The notes below the pieces were generated by a model. It searched no databases. It had not been told where the DNA came from and was given only the letters and a program-made list of their open reading frames with translations. Of a stretch of DNA of 64,000 bases, positions 1 through 42,976 are shown piece after piece; within the stretch, counting starts at the first letter, position 1, and every line of letters begins with the position of its first letter. The position numbers and the translations under genes were made by a program. The stretch is taken from NCBI GenBank assembly GCA_008694505.1, contig VZDJ01000205.1:111718-175717 (forward strand), read 5' to 3'. The DNA is from Cyanoderma ruficeps (Eukaryota > Chordata > Aves > Passeriformes > Timaliidae).

Positions 1-18
1 GGGGGGGGGGGGGGGGGG
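1..18. other. poly-G run at the window edge
   Basis: Eighteen consecutive G at the left edge, directly followed by retroviral integrase sequence. Two similar G or C runs in the window (9092-9110, 59995-60006) each touch a single n. This is probably an assembly artefact, so the true left junction of the provirus is not visible. Confidence 0.6.
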
Positions 19-578
19 CACAAGCTCTCGCAGAGCAGTTTCTGAAGTTCTTTGGGTGCAAAAAAGATGAATCAGACACTAAAGGCACAGCTATCAAAGT
101 TAATGTTAGAAACAAAAATGTCTTGAGTAAAGTGCCTCCCTCTAGCTCTGCTCTGAGACTGGACTGTCGCCATTTGAAATATTGTATAGAATGCCTTATG
201 AACATGGGATGCCGGTGGGGCACCCCCGAATAGAGAATGGCCAAATTCAACCCTATTTGATAGCTATAAATAAGAGCCTACAAGACTTGCGAAAGCACGG
301 ACTGGTAACACAAAGAACTCCCTTAGGGTTTGCTATACATAAAATACAACCTGGAGATGAGGTACTGATCAAAACCTGGGAAGAAATCTTGCTGACACCT
401 CACTGGGAAAGCCCTTTTCTTGTCCTTCTCACCACAGATACAGCTATCCAAACAGCAAAAAAAAAGGTTGGACTCATGCATCACGAGTGAAAAAGATCGA
501 GCATCGGGAAAGTACCCAGGAGTGGAAGGTATCCTCATCACCAGGAGACTTAAAAATCAGATTACAGCGTCACTGTAA
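19..578 (+). pseudogene. pol: pol remnant: integrase N-terminal scrap and C-terminal domain
   Basis: The first 45 bases correspond to the end of the integrase zinc-binding region. A deletion of roughly 420 bp then removes the whole DDE catalytic core, and the text resumes near base 68 just after the third catalytic position. An in-frame TGA lies at 124-126, and about 23 bp are missing near 155. From 182 to 490 the C-terminal DNA-binding domain is readable, including the proline-rich stretch and the segment before TPHWE. A frameshift near the A-run at 458-466 breaks the last residues. The pol stop TAA (576-578) directly abuts the ATG of the next ORF. The matching minus-strand copy is 14486-15480. 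No active integrase could come from this copy. Confidence 0.88.
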
Positions 579-1172
579 ATGACTGAGGATCAGATAAGTT
601 GTCTGGAACAGGATTGTGAATGTTTTCCATTTATTTATTTCAAATGTGTATATTGTAAACAAATTTGGGTCACCCACTGCAGAGGAGGGTATAGACCTAA
701 AGGCTTGTGTACCAAGTGTCTGGAGGAGGAACAAAAGGTGACTAGCTGTGTCTTAGTGCTTGCTACTAATTTGGGTTTGCTGGAGTTAGATTCTCTGGAG
801 TGGTATTTGATATACAAAAAGGGAGTAGAGAGAAAATTCGATGCAAAGGCACAGGTCCTTGCAATCAAGTGCCGAAGGTCAAATAAAGTACCCTGCAGGG
901 CTGATCCTGTCAAATCATTGAGGTGGGGCACTTTTAAAAGGAGGTATGCGGTTTGGACAAGCTGTGGAACCCCTGAAGAATACCCCTGCTGCCAAGAAGA
1001 TACTTTACCTCATCACTGGTTGCAACCCAGTGGGCGCAGGCAAAGGCAGAGGAGTACACCTGTGGGGAAGCCTGATGGTCCTGAGCCTAGTAGGGTGCCA
1101 GACAGCTGGAATGCACGCAGAAGACCCACTGAGGCAGAACCCCATAATGGAGTGAGCAGTGTTTGCAGATGA
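579..1172 (+). CDS. Cysteine-rich ORF of unknown function between pol and env
   Basis: An uninterrupted 197-codon frame whose ATG touches the pol stop (TAA at 576-578, ATG at 579-581). The N-terminal 50 residues are Cys-rich: C8, C13, C15, then CVYC (C23/C26), H33, C34 and CTKC (C44/C47), a pattern suggestive of a metal-binding fold. More cysteines follow in the middle (LAIKC, KVPC) and a CC pair in YPCCQED. There is no signal peptide or membrane segment. The last third overlaps the start of env (946) in another frame. The minus-strand provirus has the same ORF at 13922-14485, also abutting its pol stop, with the CxxC pairs, the KVPC segment and the CCQED segment kept despite frameshifts. I recognise no family. 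The gammaretroviral layout I know has no gene here. It could be an accessory protein or an unusual leader region. It is the only undamaged coding frame in this provirus. Confidence 0.65.
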   Translation: MTEDQISCLEQDCECFPFIYFKCVYCKQIWVTHCRGGYRPKGLCTKCLEEEQKVTSCVLVLATNLGLLELDSLEWYLIYKKGVERKFDAKAQVLAIKCRRSNKVPCRADPVKSLRWGTFKRRYAVWTSCGTPEEYPCCQEDTLPHHWLQPSGRRQRQRSTPVGKPDGPEPSRVPDSWNARRRPTEAEPHNGVSSVCR

Positions 1173-4100
1173 CTCTGGAGGGGCAGGTGACCAAGAAAAT
1201 ATTAGCCTACCAAGCCCAGTATGACTGTCAGAGAGGTAAAGAAAAGGGGTACTGTACCTTCAACGGCACAAACTACAAATTATGTGAATTGAACCGGGGA
1301 ATAGTGTGCCACAACCCAAGAGCAATACCTAAGGATGGGCAGTCAACACCTGCATCCACTGAAAAGAAAAAAAAACCAGCCATGTATTATACAAGAGAGA
1401 AGCTGGGGGGATACCAACTATTCCAACATGTAACCAATGTAATCAGACTGTGTGGATAGGAGGTAAATTGAAATCAACCTTTGTGGCCTATTTTCAAGTA
1501 AAAAAATTGTGTTATGACAGTAAAGAGCTGGGAATGTGTATTATAAGAGAGAAAACTAATTGGGTAGGAAAGAACCTGAAACATGACAGGAAACCCTCAG
1601 TAAGCAATGAGCCCATTATACTTGACCTTCTCAGGGAAGATGATGATAGAATATGTCTGCAATTTGATGAGGTTTTTTTGCTTTTCAAGGAATGAAGAAG
1701 GACTAGATCCAGAAAGTAAAATGGAGCTAGTGGCACAGGAATTAAAAAGACAGGAATCAGAAGTAAGGAAAAAGAGGATGGAACAAGAGAGGTTAAAGAC
1801 TCTGAGTGAACACTATGAACAGTTAGAAAAGCAATATAGTGACTGGGGTCTACCTGCTTCTAACCAGAATCTATTTATAGATTTAATGCAGGAAATTGCC
1901 ACAAAATTGGGTTTGTCTAACTGTTGGATTTGTGGGGGACTCAAGTCTGCAGAAAAATGGCCATAGAAAGGTGAGAGTTTAGCTCCAGAACAACTCTTAA
2001 AATGGGATAATGCTCAGATTTCAAAAACAATGCAGAAGCCCGAAGGATGGATACTGGATCAAAGGATAATTGTAACTATTTGTATTAGCAGAGAAGGAAG
2101 AGAATACAATGAGGTGGTAGGATATACTCCCTGTATATCCACCTTAGCTGTAAATTCAAACAATAATACCAAGATCTGGCAACCAGAACCCCCTAACTGG
2201 GTATTGGAGCCAAAAGAAAAAAGATACCTGTGATTAGTTTGAATCAATCGAGTTGTGTTGGCATAAAAGCCCTGGAGCTAACCCCTACCAATCTTTGGAA
2301 AGTCTGCGGGATTATTGGAGGGAGCCAGAAAAGGTAAACATGAACTGGAAGGCACCTGATGGCATATATTGGATTTGTGGGAAAAAGGCCTATAGTGAAT
2401 TACCCTGCAGATGGAAAGGATCCTGTACGCTAAGCATGATCCAGCCTTCCTTTTTCACACTACCCAGGTCAGAGAGCAATTTATTGGGATCTCCTTTGTA
2501 TGAAACCTTAAACCAACAGAAAAGGGGATTAAAGAAAGAGCTTCCCATGGCAGGAGGAAGCCAAAGATGGGGGGAGGAAGAATGGCCCGCAGAAAGAATA
2601 ATTGCATATTATGGTCCAGCTACTTGGGCCCATGATGGAAGCTGGGGTTACAGGACTCCTATCTATTTGTTAAATAGGTTGATAAGGCTTCAAGCTGTGG
2701 TAGAAATTCTCTCCAATCATACCTCAGATGCCTTAGAGTTACTAGCCAGACAACACTCTCAAATGTGGGCTTTTGTATACCAAAATCGTATAGCCCTAGA
2801 CTACCTGTTGGCAAAAGAAGGAGGAGTTTGTGGGAAATTCAATGAGTCTGAATGTTGTATAGAGATTGATGATTATGGGGAGACCATTTGGGGTCTAGCA
2901 GCTAAAATTAAAAAGGTAGCACATGTACCCGTTCAGAAATGGAATTCTATCCTCCAAGCCTCATGGTGGGATCAGTTGTTTGGGCAAGGAGCTTGGTGGA
3001 AAAAGGTAGCGTTCTTTATATTATGTTCCATCGCTGGGGTAATATTTCTACCATGCCTGATACCTTGTTTTATCTGATTGATACATTCAGTGGTACAAGG
3101 CATGCAGATTGCAACCCTGCCCACAGACCCCAAACTTGCAACAGAAAGGTCTGGTCAAATCTCTAAAATGTCAAAGATACTGAACTTAGGGGAAGAGGCA
3201 AGTAAAGCTGCAGAGGCTTTGGCTAAATTTGAAGAAGAGGTTAAAGAAGAAAACATTGTCTATCAGAAATATTGTGAAATATCACAAGGGGAATGGGATG
3301 ATTATAATAAGTTTGAAGATGACTGGTGTCATGGGTTGGCGCTGGCCAAATGCCAGTGCACCCATGAGTGCATGTTTTTTTTAATGAGCTATTGTGAGAT
3401 GTGGTCAAGAACAGAGCAGAGCAGGCTTAAAACTTGAAATAGGAAAAAAGAAATTAATTAACTTACATAACAACAGACAGTAGATACAAAAAGAAAACTT
3501 AAACACCCAAGAGTAGAAAAGAAAACCTCTTAGAACACTTCTCCTCCTCCCCCCAATTTCCATCTCTTACATGCTCAACAGTTGACACTAGCACATACCC
3601 TCATCTACTTGCTTAAACCTTCCACAACCCTGGGTTCCCAATCTAAATCATCATCCCTTAAAAAACAATCTTCAATCTATTCAGAGAGAGAGGAGTCTCT
3701 CTTGCACTACAGACCCCCCAAAGGAAACACAGGTCTATCCTCTCGTGTTCCCATGTCACCCATGGCACCACCTGGAGAATTCTACTAGGGTGACACTTTC
3801 TTTTTCATGTTTAGTGCTCTTACTACTGTCTATGGACTAAAACCAGATAGGGCTCTTTTAAAGATGTTTGGTCAAGTACTAAAAACCAGCCATCTTCTTA
3901 TATTGGGACTATCAGTCCCCTTCAACATTTACCCCTAGGGCCGAGGGTTCTAAGAATAAGCCACAAAGAGTTTGGCTTTGAACTAAAAAGCATCCACCCA
4001 AAATACAGTTTTATTTATATTTGGAAGAGTCAGGGTCCGTTTATAGTTAACATTATGCAAGAGAAGTCCAACCTAAAGGCCACTCCTCTTCATCTCTGGC

Positions 4101-10406: not shown

Positions 10407-10411
10407 ATAGC

Positions 10412-10979
10412 TGTTATAAATGAAAAGCGAAATCAGAAATTAATAACAAGCAATTTATTAATACAATAGCAAAACTAATTAGAAAAAGCCACAATAAAAG
10501 AATTAACACCGGTGTGGGTGGCAGAGTGGCAGTCTCTAAGAGAGGAGTCCACCTTGTCCACACCGTACAGTTTCTAGGGTCTGGTTTTAATAGGGGTTTT
10601 CGTATCCTCAGGCAAAGTCTATTGTGAGTTTTGGTATACTATTCATATGTAAGTCTAGTGTGTCATCCTCTGCTCAGGGTTTGAAATGGTTTCTTGGACA
10701 AGCTCGGGTAGCAGAATAGATTTCCTGGTAGTCTTTTGAGAGTTGTGTTTAGAAACTACAGATCCATATCAGTTCTTGATGGCTGGTAGTGGGCGGTAGC
10801 TATGGGCCATCTTTCATTTAGCCACTTCTTTTTCTGATGCTAATGTTTTTCAGCCAGGGTTATTGTGTTGAGAAGAATGAACCTGATAAGGAGATACCTG
10901 TACGGGACACACCTGTGTTCACAGTCAGGGTTACAATATATTTTTTAATACACAAATTTTTTCCACACTAAATATCACA
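10412..10979 (-). repeat. 3' LTR of copy 2
   Basis: Bounded by TG and CA on both strands and colinear with the 5' LTR over its full 568 bp. In the direction of transcription it starts TGTGATATTT and ends ATTTATAACA. The TATA box seen in the 5' LTR is altered (TATAAAAA to TATTAAAA, 10584-10591). Most differences from the 5' LTR are C-to-T on the + strand, that is G-to-A in the sense direction. The flanking internal sequence (GCTGGGAGAC) is a poor polypurine tract. Confidence 0.93.
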
Positions 10980-11825: not shown

Positions 11826-11931
11826 NNNNNNNNNNNNNNNNNNNNNNNNNNNNNNNNNNNNNNNNNNNNNNNNNNNNNNNNNNNNNNNNNNNNNNNNNNN
11901 NNNNNNNNNNNNNNNNNNNNNNNNNNNNNNN
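11826..11931. other. Assembly gap (run of N)
   Basis: About 106 N. The gap hides the junction between the ERVK-like LTR and the env tail of copy 2. Confidence 0.99.
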
Positions 11932-14124
11932 TTGAATTTTTTTTTTTTTTTGAATGTTTGAGAGTGGATTAGATTTTCTTCTAGCCAGTTCGGGGTCTAG
12001 GGGGAGGGCCACTCCCTGCATTCTTTGGACTACGGAATGAATTAGCCTGATAAGACAAGGAATTAAACAAGGTAAAAAGATTACTCCTGCGATGGAGCAC
12101 GATATAAAAAAGATTATCTTTTTCTACCAGGCCCCCTGCCCGAAAAATTGATCCTACTAAGGAGCTTCTAAAATCGAATTCTACTTTTGGACTGGCACGT
12201 GTGCCACCTTTTTTATTTCAGCAGCTAATCCCCTTATAGTTTCACTATAATTATCAATTTTAATACAACACTGATTCATTGAACTTTTCACATACACTTC
12301 CTTCTTCAGCAAGTAAATAATGTAAGGCCAGCCTACTTTGGTATACAAAAGCTTTCATCTGTGTATGCTGCTTTGCCAATAGCTCAAGGGCATCTGACGT
12401 GTGATTGGATACAATTTTTATCACTGCTTGCAACCAAATGAGCCTGTTTAGGAGGTATATTGGGGTTTTGTATCTTCAGCTCTCATTATTAGTCCAAGTG
12501 GCAGGGCTATAATACTCTATAATTTTCTTTGCAGGCCATTTCTCACTTCTTCACTTTTGGCTCTCTCCGGCCATGGGAAGTTCTCTTTTTAGTTCTCTTT
12601 TGTGCCTGTTCAAGGTCTTAAAAAGTGGGGCCCCCAGCAGGTTACTGTCAGAGTGAGGCAGGGTGAAAAAGAAAGGCCTTATCATTTTTAGGGTACAAGA
12701 CCCCTTCTATTTTCCTGGGAGTTCACTATATGCTTTCTTCCTACAGATCTAATAAATACCATCAGGTGCTTTTCATTTCACATTTACTTTTTCTGGTTCT
12801 TTCTAGTATTCTCTCAAGCCCTCCAAGGATTGGCCCCAGGACTCTTGTGCCAGCATAACCTAATTTTTTAAATCTATTTACAATTATTTTTTCTTATGCG
12901 GCTCCAGAAACTTTCTGGAAGTTCAGGTTGCCACATCTTTGTTTTATTATTAGAATTCACCATTAAGGTGTTTATGCAGGGAGAATACCCAACTAGATTA
13001 GTGAATTCTTTACTTTCTCGGCTGATACAGGTAGTCCCAATTATCCTTTTGTCTAGTATCCACCCCTCGGGTCTCTGGATAGTTTTTGAAATCTGAGAAT
13101 TTTTTTATTTTAGTAGTTGATTGGGGGTCAATCCTTCTCTTTTCTAGGGCCACTTCTCAGCAGATTTTAGTTTTCTACAAATTCAGTAGTTAGTTAATCC
13201 TAATTCTGTTGCTGCTTCTTGCATTAAGTTTATGAACAAGTTTTGGGTTGAAGCTGGCAATCCCTAGTCGGCATATTGCTTTTTAAATTGTTTATAGTGT
13301 TCACTCAGGGTTTTTAACTTTTTTTGTTCAAGTCTCTTTTTCTTGACTTTGGCCTTTTGTCTCTTTAGTTCTAGTGTTATTGCTTTTACCTTACTCTCAG
13401 GGTCGAGCCCATCTTCATTCTTTGAAAAACAGAAGGTGGGATCAAACTGCAAACACACTTTATTATTGTTATCTCGAAGTAGATTTAACACAATAGGTTC
13501 ACTATTGAATGGCATCTTCCCTTCATGTTTCAAGTTTTTCCCCACCCAATACAGTTTCCCTCCCAGAGAGCACATTTTTAACTTAGTTTTATCATAGCAT
13601 AAAGGATTAACTTGATAATAAGCTAGAAAGGTGGACTTCATCTTTCCCCCTATCCAGACGGTTTTGTTACACAGATTACAGGTGGGAATAGGTGGAATGA
13701 CCTCTGTTTCCTGTTTGTGGATAACATGAGCAGGAGCCTCCTTTTTGTTTTTAGAGTTGGCAGACTGCCCGTCCTTAGCAGCTACTTTCCGGTCATGACA
13801 AACCACCCCCATTTCAGATTCACAAACCTCATATCGAGTGCCGTTGAACAAACAATACCCTCTTTGCCACCCCACGGGGCATTCGATTATCTGTCCGGTC
13901 AGTGTAGCAGTCAGGCACTGTTTACACTCTCTCAGGGGATTCAGCCCTTGTGGCTCCTCGGGATTCTACCCCTTGGCACACACGGCTAGACTCAGGGCAA
14001 TCAGGATTCTCCACAGATATATTCTTCTGCTTCGCCTTCCGCCCGTAAAGAAATATACGGCGGGGCTGACTATCTTCTTGGCAGCAAGGATAGGCTTCAG
14101 GGGCTCTGGTAGTCTGAATGGCAA
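11932..14124 (-). pseudogene. env: env of copy 2, riddled with Trp-to-stop changes
   Basis: The frame corresponds to the copy 1 env throughout, from the hydrophobic leader (about 13966-14030) to the membrane anchor and tail (about 11940-12120). The position of the copy 1 start codon reads TTG here (14122-14124). Eight Trp codons that are TGG in copy 1 are stops: 13264-13266, 13183-13185, 12749-12751, 12707-12709, 12181-12183, 12157-12159, 12154-12156 and 12124-12126. The first Cys and the Trp of the surface CWIC motif are Tyr and stop. A TAG shared with copy 1 lies at 13144-13146, and one base is missing just before the CC of the transmembrane motif. Open stretches survive only between stops, the longest being 13264-13875. 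No functional envelope could be made. Confidence 0.9.
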
Positions 14125-14485
14125 ATTTTTTTTTAAAGCCAGCCCACCGGGACAGTTTAATTGTGTTAGTTTTGCAAGGTACTTTAATTGTCCTCTGGCA
14201 CTCAATTGCAAGAATTTCGGCTTTTACCTTTTACTCCCTTTTTGTATATCCAATACCAGTCTGGAGAATCTAGCTCCAGCAGACCCGCTCGAGTAGCTAA
14301 TACTAAAAGACGGCTAGTCTCCTCTTGTTCTTCAATTAAACACTTAGTACACAATCTTTTCAGTCGGTACCCACTTTCAACAATGAGTTACTCGAATTTG
14401 CTTGCAGTACACACATTCAAAGTGAATAAAAGGGGAAACACTCGCAATCAGGAACTGTGCAACTTATCTGGTTCTCGTCTGTCAT
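13922..14485 (-). pseudogene. Second copy of the cysteine-rich ORF, frameshifted
   Basis: Starts at ATG 14483-14485, directly after the pol stop TAA (14486-14488), and ends at TAA 13922-13924. Length is close to copy 1 (594 bp there, about 564 bp here). Protein-level matches to copy 1 include ISC near the start, CECFPF, CVYCKQI, CTKCL, a LLELDS block with WYxIYKKGV, LAIxC, KVPC and YPCCQED. It has single-base losses or gains near 14417, 14382 and 14225. The matches lie in one frame with mostly conservative replacements, as expected for a coding sequence under selection before the copies decayed. Its distal third overlaps the env leader, as in copy 1. Confidence 0.72.
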
Positions 14486-15480
14486 TTATGATGATGCTGC
14501 AGCTTGATTTTCAGATCCTCGGGAGGTGATGAGACTTTCCACTCAGGGGCAATTGGTGGCTCCACCTTCTTTACTCTTGAAGAGTGAGTCCAGCCCTTCT
14601 CTGCCGTCCGGATTGCAGTATCTGTGGTGAGAAGGACAACAAAAGGACCTTCCCAGTGTGGAGCCAGGGGAATATCTTTTCAGGCTTTGATTAGGACATT
14701 GTCTCCAGGTTGTACGTTCTGCACCGCATAGCCCAGAGGGGCGCTTTGGGAGACGAGTCCACGTTTTCGCAGGTCCTGCAAGTTTTTGTTTATAGCAATG
14801 AGATAAGGTTGAAGCTGACCATCTTCGATTTGGGGGTGCCCCACAGGCATTCCATGTTTGTATGGCATTCCATACAGCATTTCAAAAGGTGATAATCCAG
14901 TCTTAGAATGAGGCATTGTTCTCACATTTAGCAGAGCTAAAGGAAGGCATTTGACTCATGACATTTTTGTTTCCAGCATTAATTTTGACAATTGTACCTT
15001 TAATGTTTGGTTTATTCTCTTCACTTGCCCTGAACTTTGAGGGTGCCAGGGAGTGTGATATTGCCACTGGATTTCCAAGACTCCTGATATCTGCTTGATA
15101 ACTTTAGAAGTAAAATGAGTCTTCTGATTAGAATCAATGCAATTCACAATCCTATTTTGGGGAATAATTTTCTCTAATAAAATTTTAGACACTGTCTGGG
15201 CAGTAGCTTTTGCCCTGGCAAAATCTTCCACCCAATTAGTTAATTTATCTACAATTACTAATAGAAATTTATATCTTCTTATCTTGGGTAGCTCCGTGAA
15301 ATCTACTTGGATTTTTTCAAAGGGCCTGTAGGCTAGAGGATGCCCTCCCCGGGCCGTTTGTCTGGATCTGGTTTGATTTATCTTTTGGCAAATCACACAT
15401 CTTTGCACTTCTTGTTTAGCTAATTCAAAAATTTTTTTGCACCCAAAGAACTTTAGAAATTGTTCTGCCAATGCTTGCGT
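14486..15480 (-). pseudogene. pol: Integrase of copy 2
   Basis: The frame 14956-15471 contains the end of the zinc-binding domain (CVIC) and the catalytic core: an Asp in VDFTELP, a second Asp in CIDSNQ, and, at the third acidic position, Lys (AAG, 15019-15021) instead of Glu. TGA at 14956-14958 matches a stop in copy 1. The C-terminal domain continues in 14680-14925 up to TGA 14680-14682, where copy 1 has Trp, and then to the pol stop at 14486-14488. Upstream, the two zinc-binding His are visible, with TAA between them and the next segment (15484-15486). It is catalytically dead and matches gamma-type integrases in order and spacing. Confidence 0.9.
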
Positions 15481-17407: not shown

Positions 17408-18058
17408 CTATCTGAACGGCCAGCGGTCCCTGCAGTGTGGCGCGTCTGGAGACAGGGACAGGAGAGGGGGAGGCAGCTGGGAAAGAGGTGGAGGGGGACC
17501 AGGGACCGGCGCATGTGTAGGCGCTATCACCGGGATCCCTGATGGGGAAACCCCTGCTGCCATAGGCTGGTTAGAGGGTGCTGGGAGTGCAGATGGAGGT
17601 GCCTGACCCACTACCGAGGGTCCATGGGACCCCTGATATGGGGGAGGTAGATGATCAAGAGGGTCCCAAGGTTCATGGTGATTTTTATTTTTCTCTTTTG
17701 TTTTTAAAGCAAACAATCCAACCCGGGGTCTTTCCCACAACTCGGCATAGACCCTTTCTTCAGGATTTTTTGAATTCTTTTCTTTTACATACTTACCTAG
17801 GGCTTTGCAAGTCCATCTCTCAAAGGTACCCAACGGGGCCCTTGTCAAATGACTCCTTAGCTCCTTACCACCCCAAACCTCGATACAGTAATGTATCATT
17901 TTTTCCTTTGACCTTTCCCTTCTGCAGGGGCAATCCTCCCAGTGTTCCAGGATCCATCCCAAGGGACTTTCCCTTGGAATATCTAGTGTTTTTCCCTCCT
18001 TTTCTAGAGTGTACTCCTCCTGTTCCTTTTTCAGGTGTTTACTCTTTTTCTGTCCCAT
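17408..18058 (-). CDS. gag: Gag N-terminal fragment: matrix and PPPY late domain
   Basis: An open 216-codon frame. It begins MGQ, with Gly2 a likely myristoylation site, then a basic Lys-rich stretch and the segment SPLGWILEHWED typical of gammaretroviral matrix. HYCIEVW and ERVYAELW follow. Near residue 140 is LPPPYQG, a PPPY late domain of the kind that recruits NEDD4-like ligases for budding. The remainder is proline-rich. The frame ends before any capsid. All six TGG Trp codons I can see here are intact, unlike the 3' half of the provirus. About 715 bp separate its start from the primer site, a reasonable leader length. Known gammaretroviral Gag proteins run over 500 residues, so this is a fragment. 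Confidence 0.85.
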   Translation of the reverse strand: MGQKKSKHLKKEQEEYTLEKEGKTLDIPRESPLGWILEHWEDCPCRRERSKEKMIHYCIEVWGGKELRSHLTRAPLGTFERWTCKALGKYVKEKNSKNPEERVYAELWERPRVGLFALKTKEKNKNHHEPWDPLDHLPPPYQGSHGPSVVGQAPPSALPAPSNQPMAAGVSPSGIPVIAPTHAPVPGPPPPLSQLPPPLLSLSPDAPHCRDRWPFR

Positions 18059-18773
18059 GTTTTTGTGTGTGTGTTTTACTTACTCTTCCTCCGATTTCTG
18101 ACTGGATCGGAGATTCTCTGCATTGTTGTTGTTTCCCTCCAAGGTGGGTTCCGCGTTTCTCGGCTTACTCACCCTTTGGCAAGCTTAACCTCGGGTCCTT
18201 TCGGCCGATGTCGGATTCCCTCCTGAATTTTTTTTGGACTCTTACCAAGTCCTTAAGCTAAAAGGTTTACCAATTTCTCGAACTTGAAAGGAACGTTTTC
18301 TTCCCTTTTAGCTTTCCTGTGACCAGTTCCCCAAAGCTTCACGAGCTTTAGGTTTTACGAGCGAAATGAGAGAGTTTTCACACAGATTCGCTTCCTTCTC
18401 AGCCGACCAATTCCCTCAAGGGAGGATGGAAATGCGGCTTTGAAGTCCACAATCGCCCCGTGATAAAATCACATCTCACACGCTCGCCCGATCACCCTCA
18501 CTCAACCAGCAATACTTACAGCTTCTTTTCTTGCGTGGATTTCTTCGTGCACATAGAATTTTTACGAGTGAAAAAATTGACTGCGGTTTTTGAAGACCTC
18601 CCATCTTCCCCGAGTTCTCTGGGCCCGCCTGGATCCTTACCCCTTCTTTTATTGTGGCTTTTTGGCCTAAATTTGGCTCATTTCGCGATCGGGGCTACAG
18701 GGTCCCCCTCGCCAGGCCACTGAAATCAGCAGGGGCCCCCCCGTACAATGGGGTCCCGCAGCACCCATCAGGG

Positions 18774-18791
18774 ATCCGAGTCACGGCACCA
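18774..18791 (-). other. Primer-binding site, complementary to tRNA-His
   Basis: On the minus strand it reads TGGTGCCGTGACTCGGAT, complementary to the 3' end of tRNA-His including CCA. It starts four bases inside the 5' LTR. tRNA-His priming is known for HERV-H-type elements. It fixes the orientation and the 5' end of copy 2. Confidence 0.93.
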
Positions 18792-18795
18792 AATC

Positions 18796-19363
18796 TTTTA
18801 TAAATGAAAAGTGAAATCAGAAATTAATAACGAGCAATTTATTAATACAATCCCAAAACCAATTAGAAAAAGCCACAATAAAAGAATCAACACCGGTGTG
18901 GGTGGCAGAGTGGCAGTCTCCAAGAGTGGAGTCCACCCTGTCCACACCGTACAGTCTCCAGGGTCTGGTTTTTATAGGGGTTTTCGTATCCTCAGGCAAA
19001 GTCCATTGTGAGTTTCGGTATACTGTTCATATGTAAGTCCAGTGTGTCATCCTCTGCTCAGGGTTGGAAAAGGTTTCCTGGACAAGCTCGGGTAGCAGAA
19101 TAGATTTCCTGGTAGTCTTTTGACGGCCATGTTTAGAAACTACAGATCCACATCAGTTGTCAATGGCCGGTAGTGGGCAGTGGCTATGGGCCATCTCCCG
19201 TTCAGCCACTTCTTTGTCTGGTGCTAATGTTCCTCGGCCAGGGTTTTTGTGTTGAGAAGAATGAACCTAATAAGGAGGTATCTGTACGGGACACAACTGT
19301 GTTCACAGTCAGGGTTACAATATATTTTTTAATACACGAATTTTTCCCACATCAAATATCACA
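18796..19363 (-). repeat. 5' LTR of copy 2
   Basis: 568 bp, matching the 3' LTR end to end. In the sense direction it starts TGTGATATTT, has TATAAAAA (18969-18976), and an AATAAA-type signal near the end (about 18840). The inner terminus reads AA instead of CA. This copy keeps C on the + strand at most of the positions where the 3' LTR has T. Confidence 0.93.
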
Positions 19364-41758: not shown

Positions 41759-42976
41759 GTGATGTTTCCACGAGATACTCGGTGGAAACTGGTGGCGCGG
41801 GTTTGCTCCGTCCCGGGGGTCCGACGGAGGAACCCCCGAACCCGCGCCCTGCGCAGCCGCAATCTCTGCGGGGTGCTGGGCACTCAGCCAAGGCTGAGAA
41901 GCCCGCCACACAGCGGGCTGGAGCCCCGACTGGCAGAGTTGCCGGCGGAGCTTCCTTGGGGGCGTTGCCAGGATCCCGTGCTGCCGTGCTTTGGTCGGGG
42001 GACTCGGCACTGGGGTGGCGCTCTTTGGCCCTTTGGGCTATCCAAACAGACTCCTCTGGGAGCCCGTCACCCTCCGAAATTCTCCCTCGTTCGCGAGTCA
42101 CGCGCGGCACCTCCCCCATGGCACATTCCCCCCCCTTTCCCCTGTGTCCTTGAACGGGACGCTTGGCAGTGCTGCGGCGCTGTGGGGCACGTCCCCCTCG
42201 CTGCTCCGTTCTTCCCCCGTCGTTCTTCCCCCGTCGTGAGGCGGAGCGGAGCCTCCAAGGTGGAGGCGGGGTCCAGCGCGGCCGCCTCTGAGGTGGACAC
42301 GCCCTCCCCCGCGCTGCTCTCTCCCCCCGCGCGGAGCCGGGGTGGCGCTGCGCACGCAGACGCCTCTAAGGTAGAGGCAAGCTCTGGTTTTGGCGCTGTG
42401 TTTAAGGGGAAAAACGGCACGGATGATGTCCAAGCCAAGGCTGATGCAGTGCATGGCCGTGGCTTGGCACGGTGCTTCCTTCATGGCAGGGATGGATTCT
42501 CTAGCTCTGGAGTTCCTGTGAGACAGGGTCTCGCCCCTGTCCCACTGCATTCTAAGGGACACGATTCAGTGGACGAAGTTGTCTCACTGAGCAGTTTGAA
42601 AGCTTTCCCTGTCATTCAGGGAGCTGGCCACAAAAAACATGTAGTTACCAGCCTGCAGCCAACCTGCAAGGGGCAGCAGGGTGGGAAGCAGACACGGGCA
42701 AATGCTCAGGCCAGCAAGAAAAAAGGGAAGAAAGTGAAAAAGGGGACTTTTCCTTCATTTTTCTGTGGACGGTGTGGAATGCCAAATCATACAGCCGAAG
42801 CTTGTAAGGCAATGGTTCATGTGAATGGCCAGCCTCTAGCAGGCTCAGAAAACAGGCAGAGAAGCCCAAAAGGGAAACATACTCAGACACGAGTCTCTTC
42901 CCAATCCTCAGACCCGATGGAGGTCAGCTGGGCAAGCTCACTTCCCACACCCACCCGCCCCTTTCACTGTCCCTGA
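41759..42976 (+). CDS. gag: Open gag middle and nucleocapsid with one zinc knuckle
   Basis: A 405-codon open frame. The first half lies in very GC-rich, CpG-rich DNA and is rich in Pro, Arg, Ala and Ser. Three similar blocks of about ten residues occur between 42250 and 42390 (ASKVEAGSS, ASEVDTPS, ASKVEASSG). The C-terminal part has a Lys-rich basic stretch (about 42715-42755), then CGRCGMPNHTAEAC, a CCHC zinc knuckle that binds genomic RNA in nucleocapsid. The frame ends at 42976. The starting Met is arbitrary: this is the inside of gag read from the first ATG after a frame break. No capsid major-homology region is recognisable. Frames on the opposite strand here are composition-driven. Confidence 0.7.
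   Translation: MMFPRDTRWKLVARVCSVPGVRRRNPRTRALRSRNLCGVLGTQPRLRSPPHSGLEPRLAELPAELPWGRCQDPVLPCFGRGTRHWGGALWPFGLSKQTPLGARHPPKFSLVRESRAAPPPWHIPPPFPCVLERDAWQCCGAVGHVPLAAPFFPRRSSPVVRRSGASKVEAGSSAAASEVDTPSPALLSPPARSRGGAAHADASKVEASSGFGAVFKGKNGTDDVQAKADAVHGRGLARCFLHGRDGFSSSGVPVRQGLAPVPLHSKGHDSVDEVVSLSSLKAFPVIQGAGHKKHVVTSLQPTCKGQQGGKQTRANAQASKKKGKKVKKGTFPSFFCGRCGMPNHTAEACKAMVHVNGQPLAGSENRQRSPKGKHTQTRVSSQSSDPMEVSWASSLPTPTRPFHCP

What the first reader, a model, noticed from the sequence alone, without database searches (positions are those of the whole stretch)
579..1172. Conserved cysteine-rich ORF between pol and env in two proviruses
Seen: both gamma-type copies (579-1172 and 13922-14485) have an ORF of about 190 codons whose ATG directly follows the pol TAA. 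Two CxxC pairs, a His-Cys, LAIxC, KVPC and YPCCQED are kept, with mostly conservative replacements between. In copy 1 it is fully open while pol and env around it are broken. Known: the gammaretroviral layout I know has no gene here. Inference: an accessory protein with a metal-binding N-terminus, specific to this ERV lineage.
Basis: partly seen in the sequence, partly recalled or inferred. Interest (0 to 1): 0.8.

Follow-up and report, generated by a model that had tools for sequence, protein, structure and literature searches.

The report
New accessory gene in bird retroviruses
A family of ancient bird retroviruses carries an apparently undescribed, strongly conserved cysteine-rich gene between its polymerase and envelope genes, which suggests that some gamma-type retroviruses, usually thought of as simple, had an extra control or host-interaction protein.

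Summary
The 197-codon ORF at 579-1172 is real and coding. The host genome gives at least 151 matches, some of them pieces of one locus. In 62 of 70 fetched loci it lies between integrase and env. Across 38 copies with long open frames, codons 1-115 show purifying selection: median dN/dS 0.08-0.19 at pS above 0.3. The two other frames do not show it. Twelve Cys and His33 are kept in nearly all of 34 non-redundant copies.

Pol ends at a TGA overlapping the ORF's ATG (31 of 31 usable starts). Copy 2 is on the minus strand. Copy 2's ORF is broken across three frames.

It is lineage-restricted: an ORF match follows 85 of 100 integrases at 58% identity or more, 3 of 50 below. No family or solved structure matches credibly.

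Best reading: an accessory gene encoding a zinc-binding adaptor, made with Env from a spliced RNA. Function, metal and splicing are inferred. G-to-A hypermutation in 9 of 71 copies makes a Vif-like role worth testing.

The parts
579..1172 (+). ORF, 197 codons plus stop: lineage-specific accessory gene, copy 1
600..719 (+). residues 8-47: Cys-rich N-terminal module (C8, C13, C15, C23, C26, H33, C34, C44, C47), enough ligands for two zinc ions (inferred)
870..992 (+). residues 98-138: second conserved Cys cluster (C98, C106, C137, C138)
1032..1058 (+). residues 152-160: basic tail (GRRQRQRST); lies in the stretch shared with the env frame
   Evidence: weak constraint there
361..582 (+). 3' end of the pol (integrase C-terminal) frame; its TGA stop at 580-582 overlaps the ORF ATG at 579-581
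412..437 (+). candidate splice acceptor: pyrimidine tract and CAG; the tract also lies in the integrase coding frame, so it may be coincidental
922..1152 (+). env-frame leader overlapping the ORF (+1 relative to the ORF); first env-frame ATG at 946
1148..3077 (+). remainder of env, broken into several frames; the TM part matches Pfam TLV_coat
13922..14485 (-). relic of the same ORF in copy 2, similarity in three frames
14959..15471 (-). integrase fragment of copy 2 (Pfam rve)
12016..13875 (-). env relic of copy 2
18795..19363 (-). 5' LTR of copy 2 (matched extent)
10411..10979 (-). 3' LTR of copy 2, 91.2% identical to the 5' LTR; 22 of 50 substitutions are G (5' LTR) to A (3' LTR)
18774..18791 (-). 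primer-binding-site-like stretch after the 5' LTR (resembles tRNA-His; assignment recalled)
18077..18086 (-). candidate splice donor (AGAGTAAGTA), just upstream of the gag ATG at 18058
   Evidence: read; no test run

Best explanation
The ORF is a genuine fourth gene of one gamma-type (class I) bird ERV lineage, apparently gained after that lineage split from sister lineages of the same genome, whose readable loci have no such ORF. Anatomy shown: its ATG overlaps the pol stop (ATGA), its 3' part overlaps env in another frame, and it encodes about 170-200 residues. The protein has a Cys-rich N-terminal module (8 Cys and one His in residues 8-47), a middle part with four more nearly invariant Cys, and a basic tail. 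Inferred expression: the singly spliced env RNA, joined at an acceptor about 133-143 nt upstream, presents this start codon in a weak context, so ribosomes make some of this protein and scan on to env. Inferred action: the zinc-stabilised module acts as an adaptor docking on a conserved host or viral partner. That is, it is an accessory or regulatory protein working during infection, not a structural protein. Sub-estimates: real coding gene 0.97; zinc-binding 0.85; shares the spliced RNA with env 0.65; adaptor toward a host factor 0.5, against RNA or transcription regulator 0.3.
For: At least 151 matches in the genome, many in open frames of 170-200 codons. IN-ORF-env order in 62 of 70 loci. 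Purifying selection: codons 1-60 median dN/dS 0.109 (257 pairs, pS 0.5-0.7), codons 61-115 0.165 (250 pairs). pN/pS in the ORF frame is 0.24-0.40 over codons 1-135, against 0.70-1.69 in the two other frames. ORF codons 1-115 pN/pS 0.27-0.30 lies between pol (0.20-0.22) and env (0.49, rough), pairs with pS above 0.3. Each of the 12 Cys and His33 is kept in 31-34 of the 32-34 non-redundant copies with a letter there. ATGA overlap and a pyrimidine at -3 in 31 of 31 usable starts; acceptor-like site in 28 of 31. No relative of the ORF in six sister loci read, two of them clear (L072, L075) and one probable (L074). ORF match after 85/100 integrases at >=58% identity, 1/14 at 53-57%, 2/27 at 44-52%, 0/9 below.
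Against: No RNA or protein evidence. Both structure predictions are poor (mean pLDDT 43 and 42). The acceptor tract lies in the integrase frame, and 16 of the 28 loci with an acceptor-like site have an ATG between it and the ORF start. The C-terminal quarter has median dN/dS of 0.24-0.94 by divergence bin and may be dispensable. Deep pairs are near saturation at synonymous sites, and copies share ancestry, so pairs are not independent. My choice of copies leans: it asked for 135 open codons and an N-terminal pattern that itself contains the positions of C13, C15 and P17, and six loci without that pattern were dropped, so conservation at those three positions is partly by construction. rests on capped lists (150 of 200 and 150 of 838 candidates scored).
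Confidence: 0.8

Rival explanations
1. A nuclear export or transcription regulator of the Rev/Rec/Rem or Tat/Tax type: the basic tail binds viral RNA or serves as nuclear localisation signal, and a leucine-rich helix serves as export signal.
For: Arg-rich tail motif in 24 of 29 copies of at least 165 residues. An export-signal-like pattern at residues 58-68 in L001, L008 and L041, among five copies printed. Constraint closer to pol than to env.
Against: The tail lies where constraint on this frame is weak. The loose export pattern matches somewhere in 38 of 38 copies and is uninformative; in L054 it is not at residues 58-68. The gene sits on the presumed singly spliced RNA, not on a fully spliced one (inference).
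Confidence: 0.27
2. A captured host gene, as in CrocERV29, where a KIT-ligand ORF sits between pol and env.
For: Same position, and purifying selection reported for that case (PMC4299795, section 9 read).
Against: No Pfam, NCBIfam or PDB-sequence match worth crediting. Database relatives are only 11 proteins: one Zosterops hypothetical protein and ten unnamed. Host proteins could not be compared by fold.
Confidence: 0.1
3. Not a separate gene: an extension of env or pol, or an ORF held open by overlap.
For: It overlaps the open env frame by roughly 200-350 nt.
Against: In L041 and L054, where env is open, it is in frame +0 while both pol and env are in +1, with its own start and stop. Selection is strongest in codons 1-60 and clear to codon 135, while the env frame shows none by the same measure. 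Joining it to env would need a +1 shift.
Confidence: 0.03

Closest known systems
KIT-ligand ORF of CrocERV29 (PMC4299795)
   Same: Extra ORF between pol and env of an ERV, under purifying selection (section 9 read).
   Different: That one is a recognisable captured host gene (nine copies retain the ORF), in a lineage represented by the consensus SFV1-21_Gav. This one has no detectable homologue outside the family, several subfamilies and a fixed ATGA start.
Lentiviral Vif (recalled)
   Same: Starts at the very end of pol, overlaps pol, precedes env, zinc-binding protein; and this lineage bears APOBEC-type G-to-A footprints.
   Different: SLQxLA in 0 of 38 and PPLP in 0 of 38 copies; Cys pattern differs from the recalled HCCH motif.
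Papillomavirus E6-type zinc modules (recalled)
   Same: Paired CxxC motifs in a small viral protein.
   Different: Spacing between the CxxC pairs is 17 residues here, against 29-30 recalled for E6; no Pfam match for P0001.
Gammaretroviruses and class I ERVs; TgERV-F (PMC10536682, passages)
   Same: Pol with MLVIN_C and env TM with TLV_coat.
   Different: No gene of this kind in the gammaretroviral layout (recalled); readable sister loci in the same genome lack it. TgERV-F is described as an alpharetrovirus with a gamma-type env.

Membership tests
Class I (gamma-type) ERV | Integrase with gamma-type C-terminal domain | tested here: met
   MLVIN_C 34.6 bits over cut-off 29.2 in L054 pol
Class I (gamma-type) ERV | Gamma-type TM in env | tested here: met
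   TLV_coat E 2.2e-10 in window 2253-3074; the open env frame of L054 gave no family in the same call
Class I (gamma-type) ERV | RT phylogeny places it with gammaretroviruses | not tested
   RT of copy 1 is not in the window (assembly gap upstream); no tree built
Retroviral accessory gene | Own reading frame outside gag, pol, env with conserved product | tested here: met
Retroviral accessory gene | Expressed protein that is not part of Gag, Pol or Env | not testable with these tools
   no RNA, protein or infection data
Vif | SLQxLA BC-box motif and PPLP motif (recalled) | tested here: not met
   0 of 38 each
Vif | Counteracts APOBEC enzymes | not testable with these tools
   only indirect: hypermutated copies exist
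Papillomavirus E6 | CxxC-x29/30-CxxC spacing (recalled) | tested here: not met
   CxxC-x17-CxxC
Rev/Rec-type RNA export factor | Conserved Arg-rich RNA-binding motif and export signal | tested here: inconclusive
Captured host gene | Detectable host homologue | tested here: not met
   sequence methods only

The most novel reading that the evidence does not exclude
The protein is an independently evolved, zinc-based counterpart of Vif in bird gamma-type retroviruses, which protects reverse transcription against avian APOBEC1-type deaminases. It starts at the end of pol as vif does, is under strong constraint, and its lineage visibly suffers GR-context G-to-A editing, in hosts (songbirds, if the inference about the host is right) where such editing is reported to be exceptionally strong.
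Probability: 0.1. Interest if true: 0.92.

Novelty: new variant of a known kind. Interest (0 to 1): 0.74.

Why it matters
Gamma-type retroviruses are the textbook simple retroviruses. A conserved extra gene in a lineage with on the order of a hundred loci in one genome means that complexity arose there too, outside the known complex genera. The genome record gives several subfamilies for tracing when the gene was gained and which residues matter. Because the same copies carry deaminase footprints, a question becomes directly testable: whether retroviruses of birds, which lack the mammalian APOBEC3 genes (recalled), needed an antagonist of DNA editing.

Tried and rejected
Tried without result: relatives in IMG/VR viral contigs with P0001 and with A3 (none confirmed). 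PDB sequences (with P0001, with A3: best E 0.68 and 0.55). Pfam on 15 members (five families in 1 or 2 members each, best 0.011, an ANCHR-like B-box in 1 of 15; not credited). NCBIfam (2 of 15 to a bacterial transporter, best 0.026; not credited). Two AlphaFold2 jobs on 12-row alignments gave mean pLDDT 43.1 and 42.4, too poor for a fold search, so none was run. Both models put strands at about 18-34 and a helix at about 45-65, which would suit a treble-clef zinc finger; this is not counted as evidence.

Rejected: chance ORF, env or pol extension, E6 likeness (spacing), membership in Vif (motifs absent). Openness of copy 1 alone was not used as evidence of function. The env figure is rough because env segments were picked by length. 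The long output was cut, so counts of open env frames from it are lower bounds.

Literature: of ten searches, eight looked for this gene and two for deaminase editing in birds. No listed title or abstract start described the gene; each listing shows only the best 6 to 20 papers, often of many more. Eight papers were opened: passages of PMC2717909, PMC10536682, PMC4272516, PMC1224870, PMC3880073, PMC6523648 and PMC6497032, and passages plus section 9 of PMC4299795. The library holds open-licence PMC papers only, and one relevant paper (10.1128/mBio.00344-12) is not held.

Full report
What is there. The ORF at 579-1172 + is 197 codons long and open. Upstream is the 3' end of a pol gene whose earlier part is lost in an assembly gap (the window starts with a run of G; locus L001 shows N before it). 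Downstream is an env broken into several pieces. Copy 2 is on the minus strand: LTRs at 18795-19363 and 10411-10979, a pol relic, the ORF relic at 14485-13922, an env relic. Its ORF is not open: stops in the first frame, similarity to the family in three frames.

The pol frame does not end at the TAA before the ATG; it ends at the TGA inside ATGA. This overlap occurs in 31 of 31 starts that could be judged. 38 loci were examined there; seven were left out: four whose trimmed start is not ATG (L011, L012 with a shifted frame, L052, L063 with a changed start codon) and three where my trimming picked an internal ATG (L016, L060, L061).

Family. One genome search gave 151 matches at E <= 0.001, a lower bound (150 of 200 candidates scored) that includes pieces of single loci. 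Listed identity to P0001 runs from 100% down to 33%. Of 70 fetched loci, 64 have integrase upstream, 67 env downstream, 62 both. In four loci (L033, L044, L048, L054) the pol frame is open for over 500 codons up to the overlap, and env is open for over 500 codons in at least two (L041, L054, output cut). Outside this genome, protein searches found a Zosterops borbonicus hypothetical protein and ten unnamed proteins. A third search with a wider alignment returned only five of these.

Selection. 44 loci had an open stretch of at least 135 codons around the match; six were dropped for lacking an N-terminal pattern, and 38 were codon-aligned (116-199 codons after trimming). Pairwise Nei-Gojobori estimates: codons 1-60, pooled pN/pS 0.228 and median dN/dS 0.109 at pS 0.5-0.7 (257 pairs), and 0.255 and 0.211 at pS 0.15-0.3 (18 pairs), so saturation does not make the result. 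Codons 61-115: 0.342 and 0.165 at pS 0.5-0.7 (250 pairs). Codons 116-150: 0.388 and 0.211 (264 pairs). From codon 151 on, median dN/dS is 0.24-0.94 by bin. The five pairs with pS below 0.05 show no constraint (pooled pN/pS 1.24), as expected after insertion, but are very few. Frame control: over codons 1-135 the ORF frame has pN/pS 0.24-0.40, the +1 frame 0.89-1.39 and the +2 frame 0.70-1.69. The env frame is +1 and is not constrained in the overlap by this measure (1.07-1.44 over codons 116-175). In pairs with pS above 0.3 the ORF (0.27-0.30) lies between pol (0.20-0.22) and env (0.49; rough).

Anatomy of the protein. In 34 copies less than 97% alike, C8, C13, C15, C23, C26, C34, C47 and C98 are each kept in 32-33 of 33-34; H33 is kept in 34 of 34, C44 and C106 in 34 of 34, C137 in 31 of 32 and C138 in 32 of 32. 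C13 and C15 lie in the pattern used to choose copies, so their score leans. Median pairwise identity is 61%, minimum 39%. Eight Cys and a His within 40 residues suit two zinc ions; this is inference. The Arg-rich tail motif is present in 24 of 29 copies of at least 165 residues but lies in the weakly constrained overlap.

Expression (inference). An acceptor-like site lies in 28 of 31 loci 110-160 nt upstream; in 12 of these no ATG intervenes, in 16 one does. All 31 starts have a pyrimidine at -3, a weak context, so leaky scanning to the env-frame ATGs at +220 to +367 is plausible. The tract lies in the integrase frame, so it may be coincidental.

Lineage restriction. Among 150 integrase places, an ORF match lies within 2.5 kb downstream in 85 of 100 at >= 58% identity, 1 of 14 at 53-57%, 2 of 27 at 44-52% and 0 of 9 below. 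Both lists are capped (150 of 200 and 150 of 838 candidates scored), so absences are not certain. Six sister loci were read: in L072 the env frame opens about 130 nt after pol, in L075 directly after it. In L074 pol is broken near its end and about 540 nt lie before the open env frame, without an ORF match. L071, L073 and L076 are too decayed to judge. None of the six encodes a relative of the ORF at E below 0.1.

Deaminase footprints. Site-wise polarised changes show excess G-to-A at GA or GG in 9 of 71 sequences after Bonferroni correction on two tests. Copy 2 is among them; so are L019, whose ORF is open, and L056, open for 146 codons. In copy 2, 22 of 50 LTR substitutions are G in the 5' LTR and A in the 3' LTR, 20 of them before A or G, against 3 in the opposite direction. 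Papers, passages only, both citing Knisbacher and Levanon: APOBEC modification of LTR elements is especially strong in zebra finch (PMC6523648), and birds, above all oscine passerines, have the strongest hypermutation signals (PMC6497032). This shows the pressure under which a Vif-like protein would be useful. That edited copies exist, one with an open ORF, shows that protection, if any, was incomplete. No comparison with ORF-less lineages was made.

Known or not. Closest precedent read: a KIT-ligand ORF between pol and env in CrocERV29 (PMC4299795, section 9). OVEX1 (PMC2717909, passages) is described with three ORFs: gag, pro-pol and an env-like one. Eight literature searches listed no description of this gene; the library is incomplete and only the top of each listing was seen.

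Verdict. A real, apparently undescribed accessory gene of a gamma-type bird ERV lineage; function unproven.

Noticed in passing
window 12016-15471 (-), LTRs 10411-10979 and 18795-19363; loci L059, L066, L062, L068, L013, L019, L018, L056: Plus-strand G-to-A hypermutation in GA/GG context, the mark of an APOBEC-type deaminase, in 9 of 71 sequences tested.
   Followed up: partly
L053, L057, L058 and five further matches with the same score as L057 and L058: Nearly identical ORF copies; in the three fetched ones the ORF is open while pol and env are broken in similar ways, as if recently amplified without working pol or env of their own.
   Followed up: no
L073, about 630-1526: A sister lineage (integrase 54%) with some 900 nt between the end of pol and an env-like hydrophobic stretch; too decayed to tell whether another gene stood there.
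   Followed up: no
L072, about 882-1200: The env N-terminal leader of an ORF-less sister lineage contains a short repeated unit.
   Followed up: no
window 41759-42976 (+): A 405-codon GTG-initiated frame with a CCHC-knuckle-like motif near its end (CGRCGMPNHTAEAC); possibly gag-like.
   Followed up: no
window 1-18 and 11826-11931: A G run next to an assembly gap, and a run of N; both touch the proviruses and hide missing parts.
   Followed up: no
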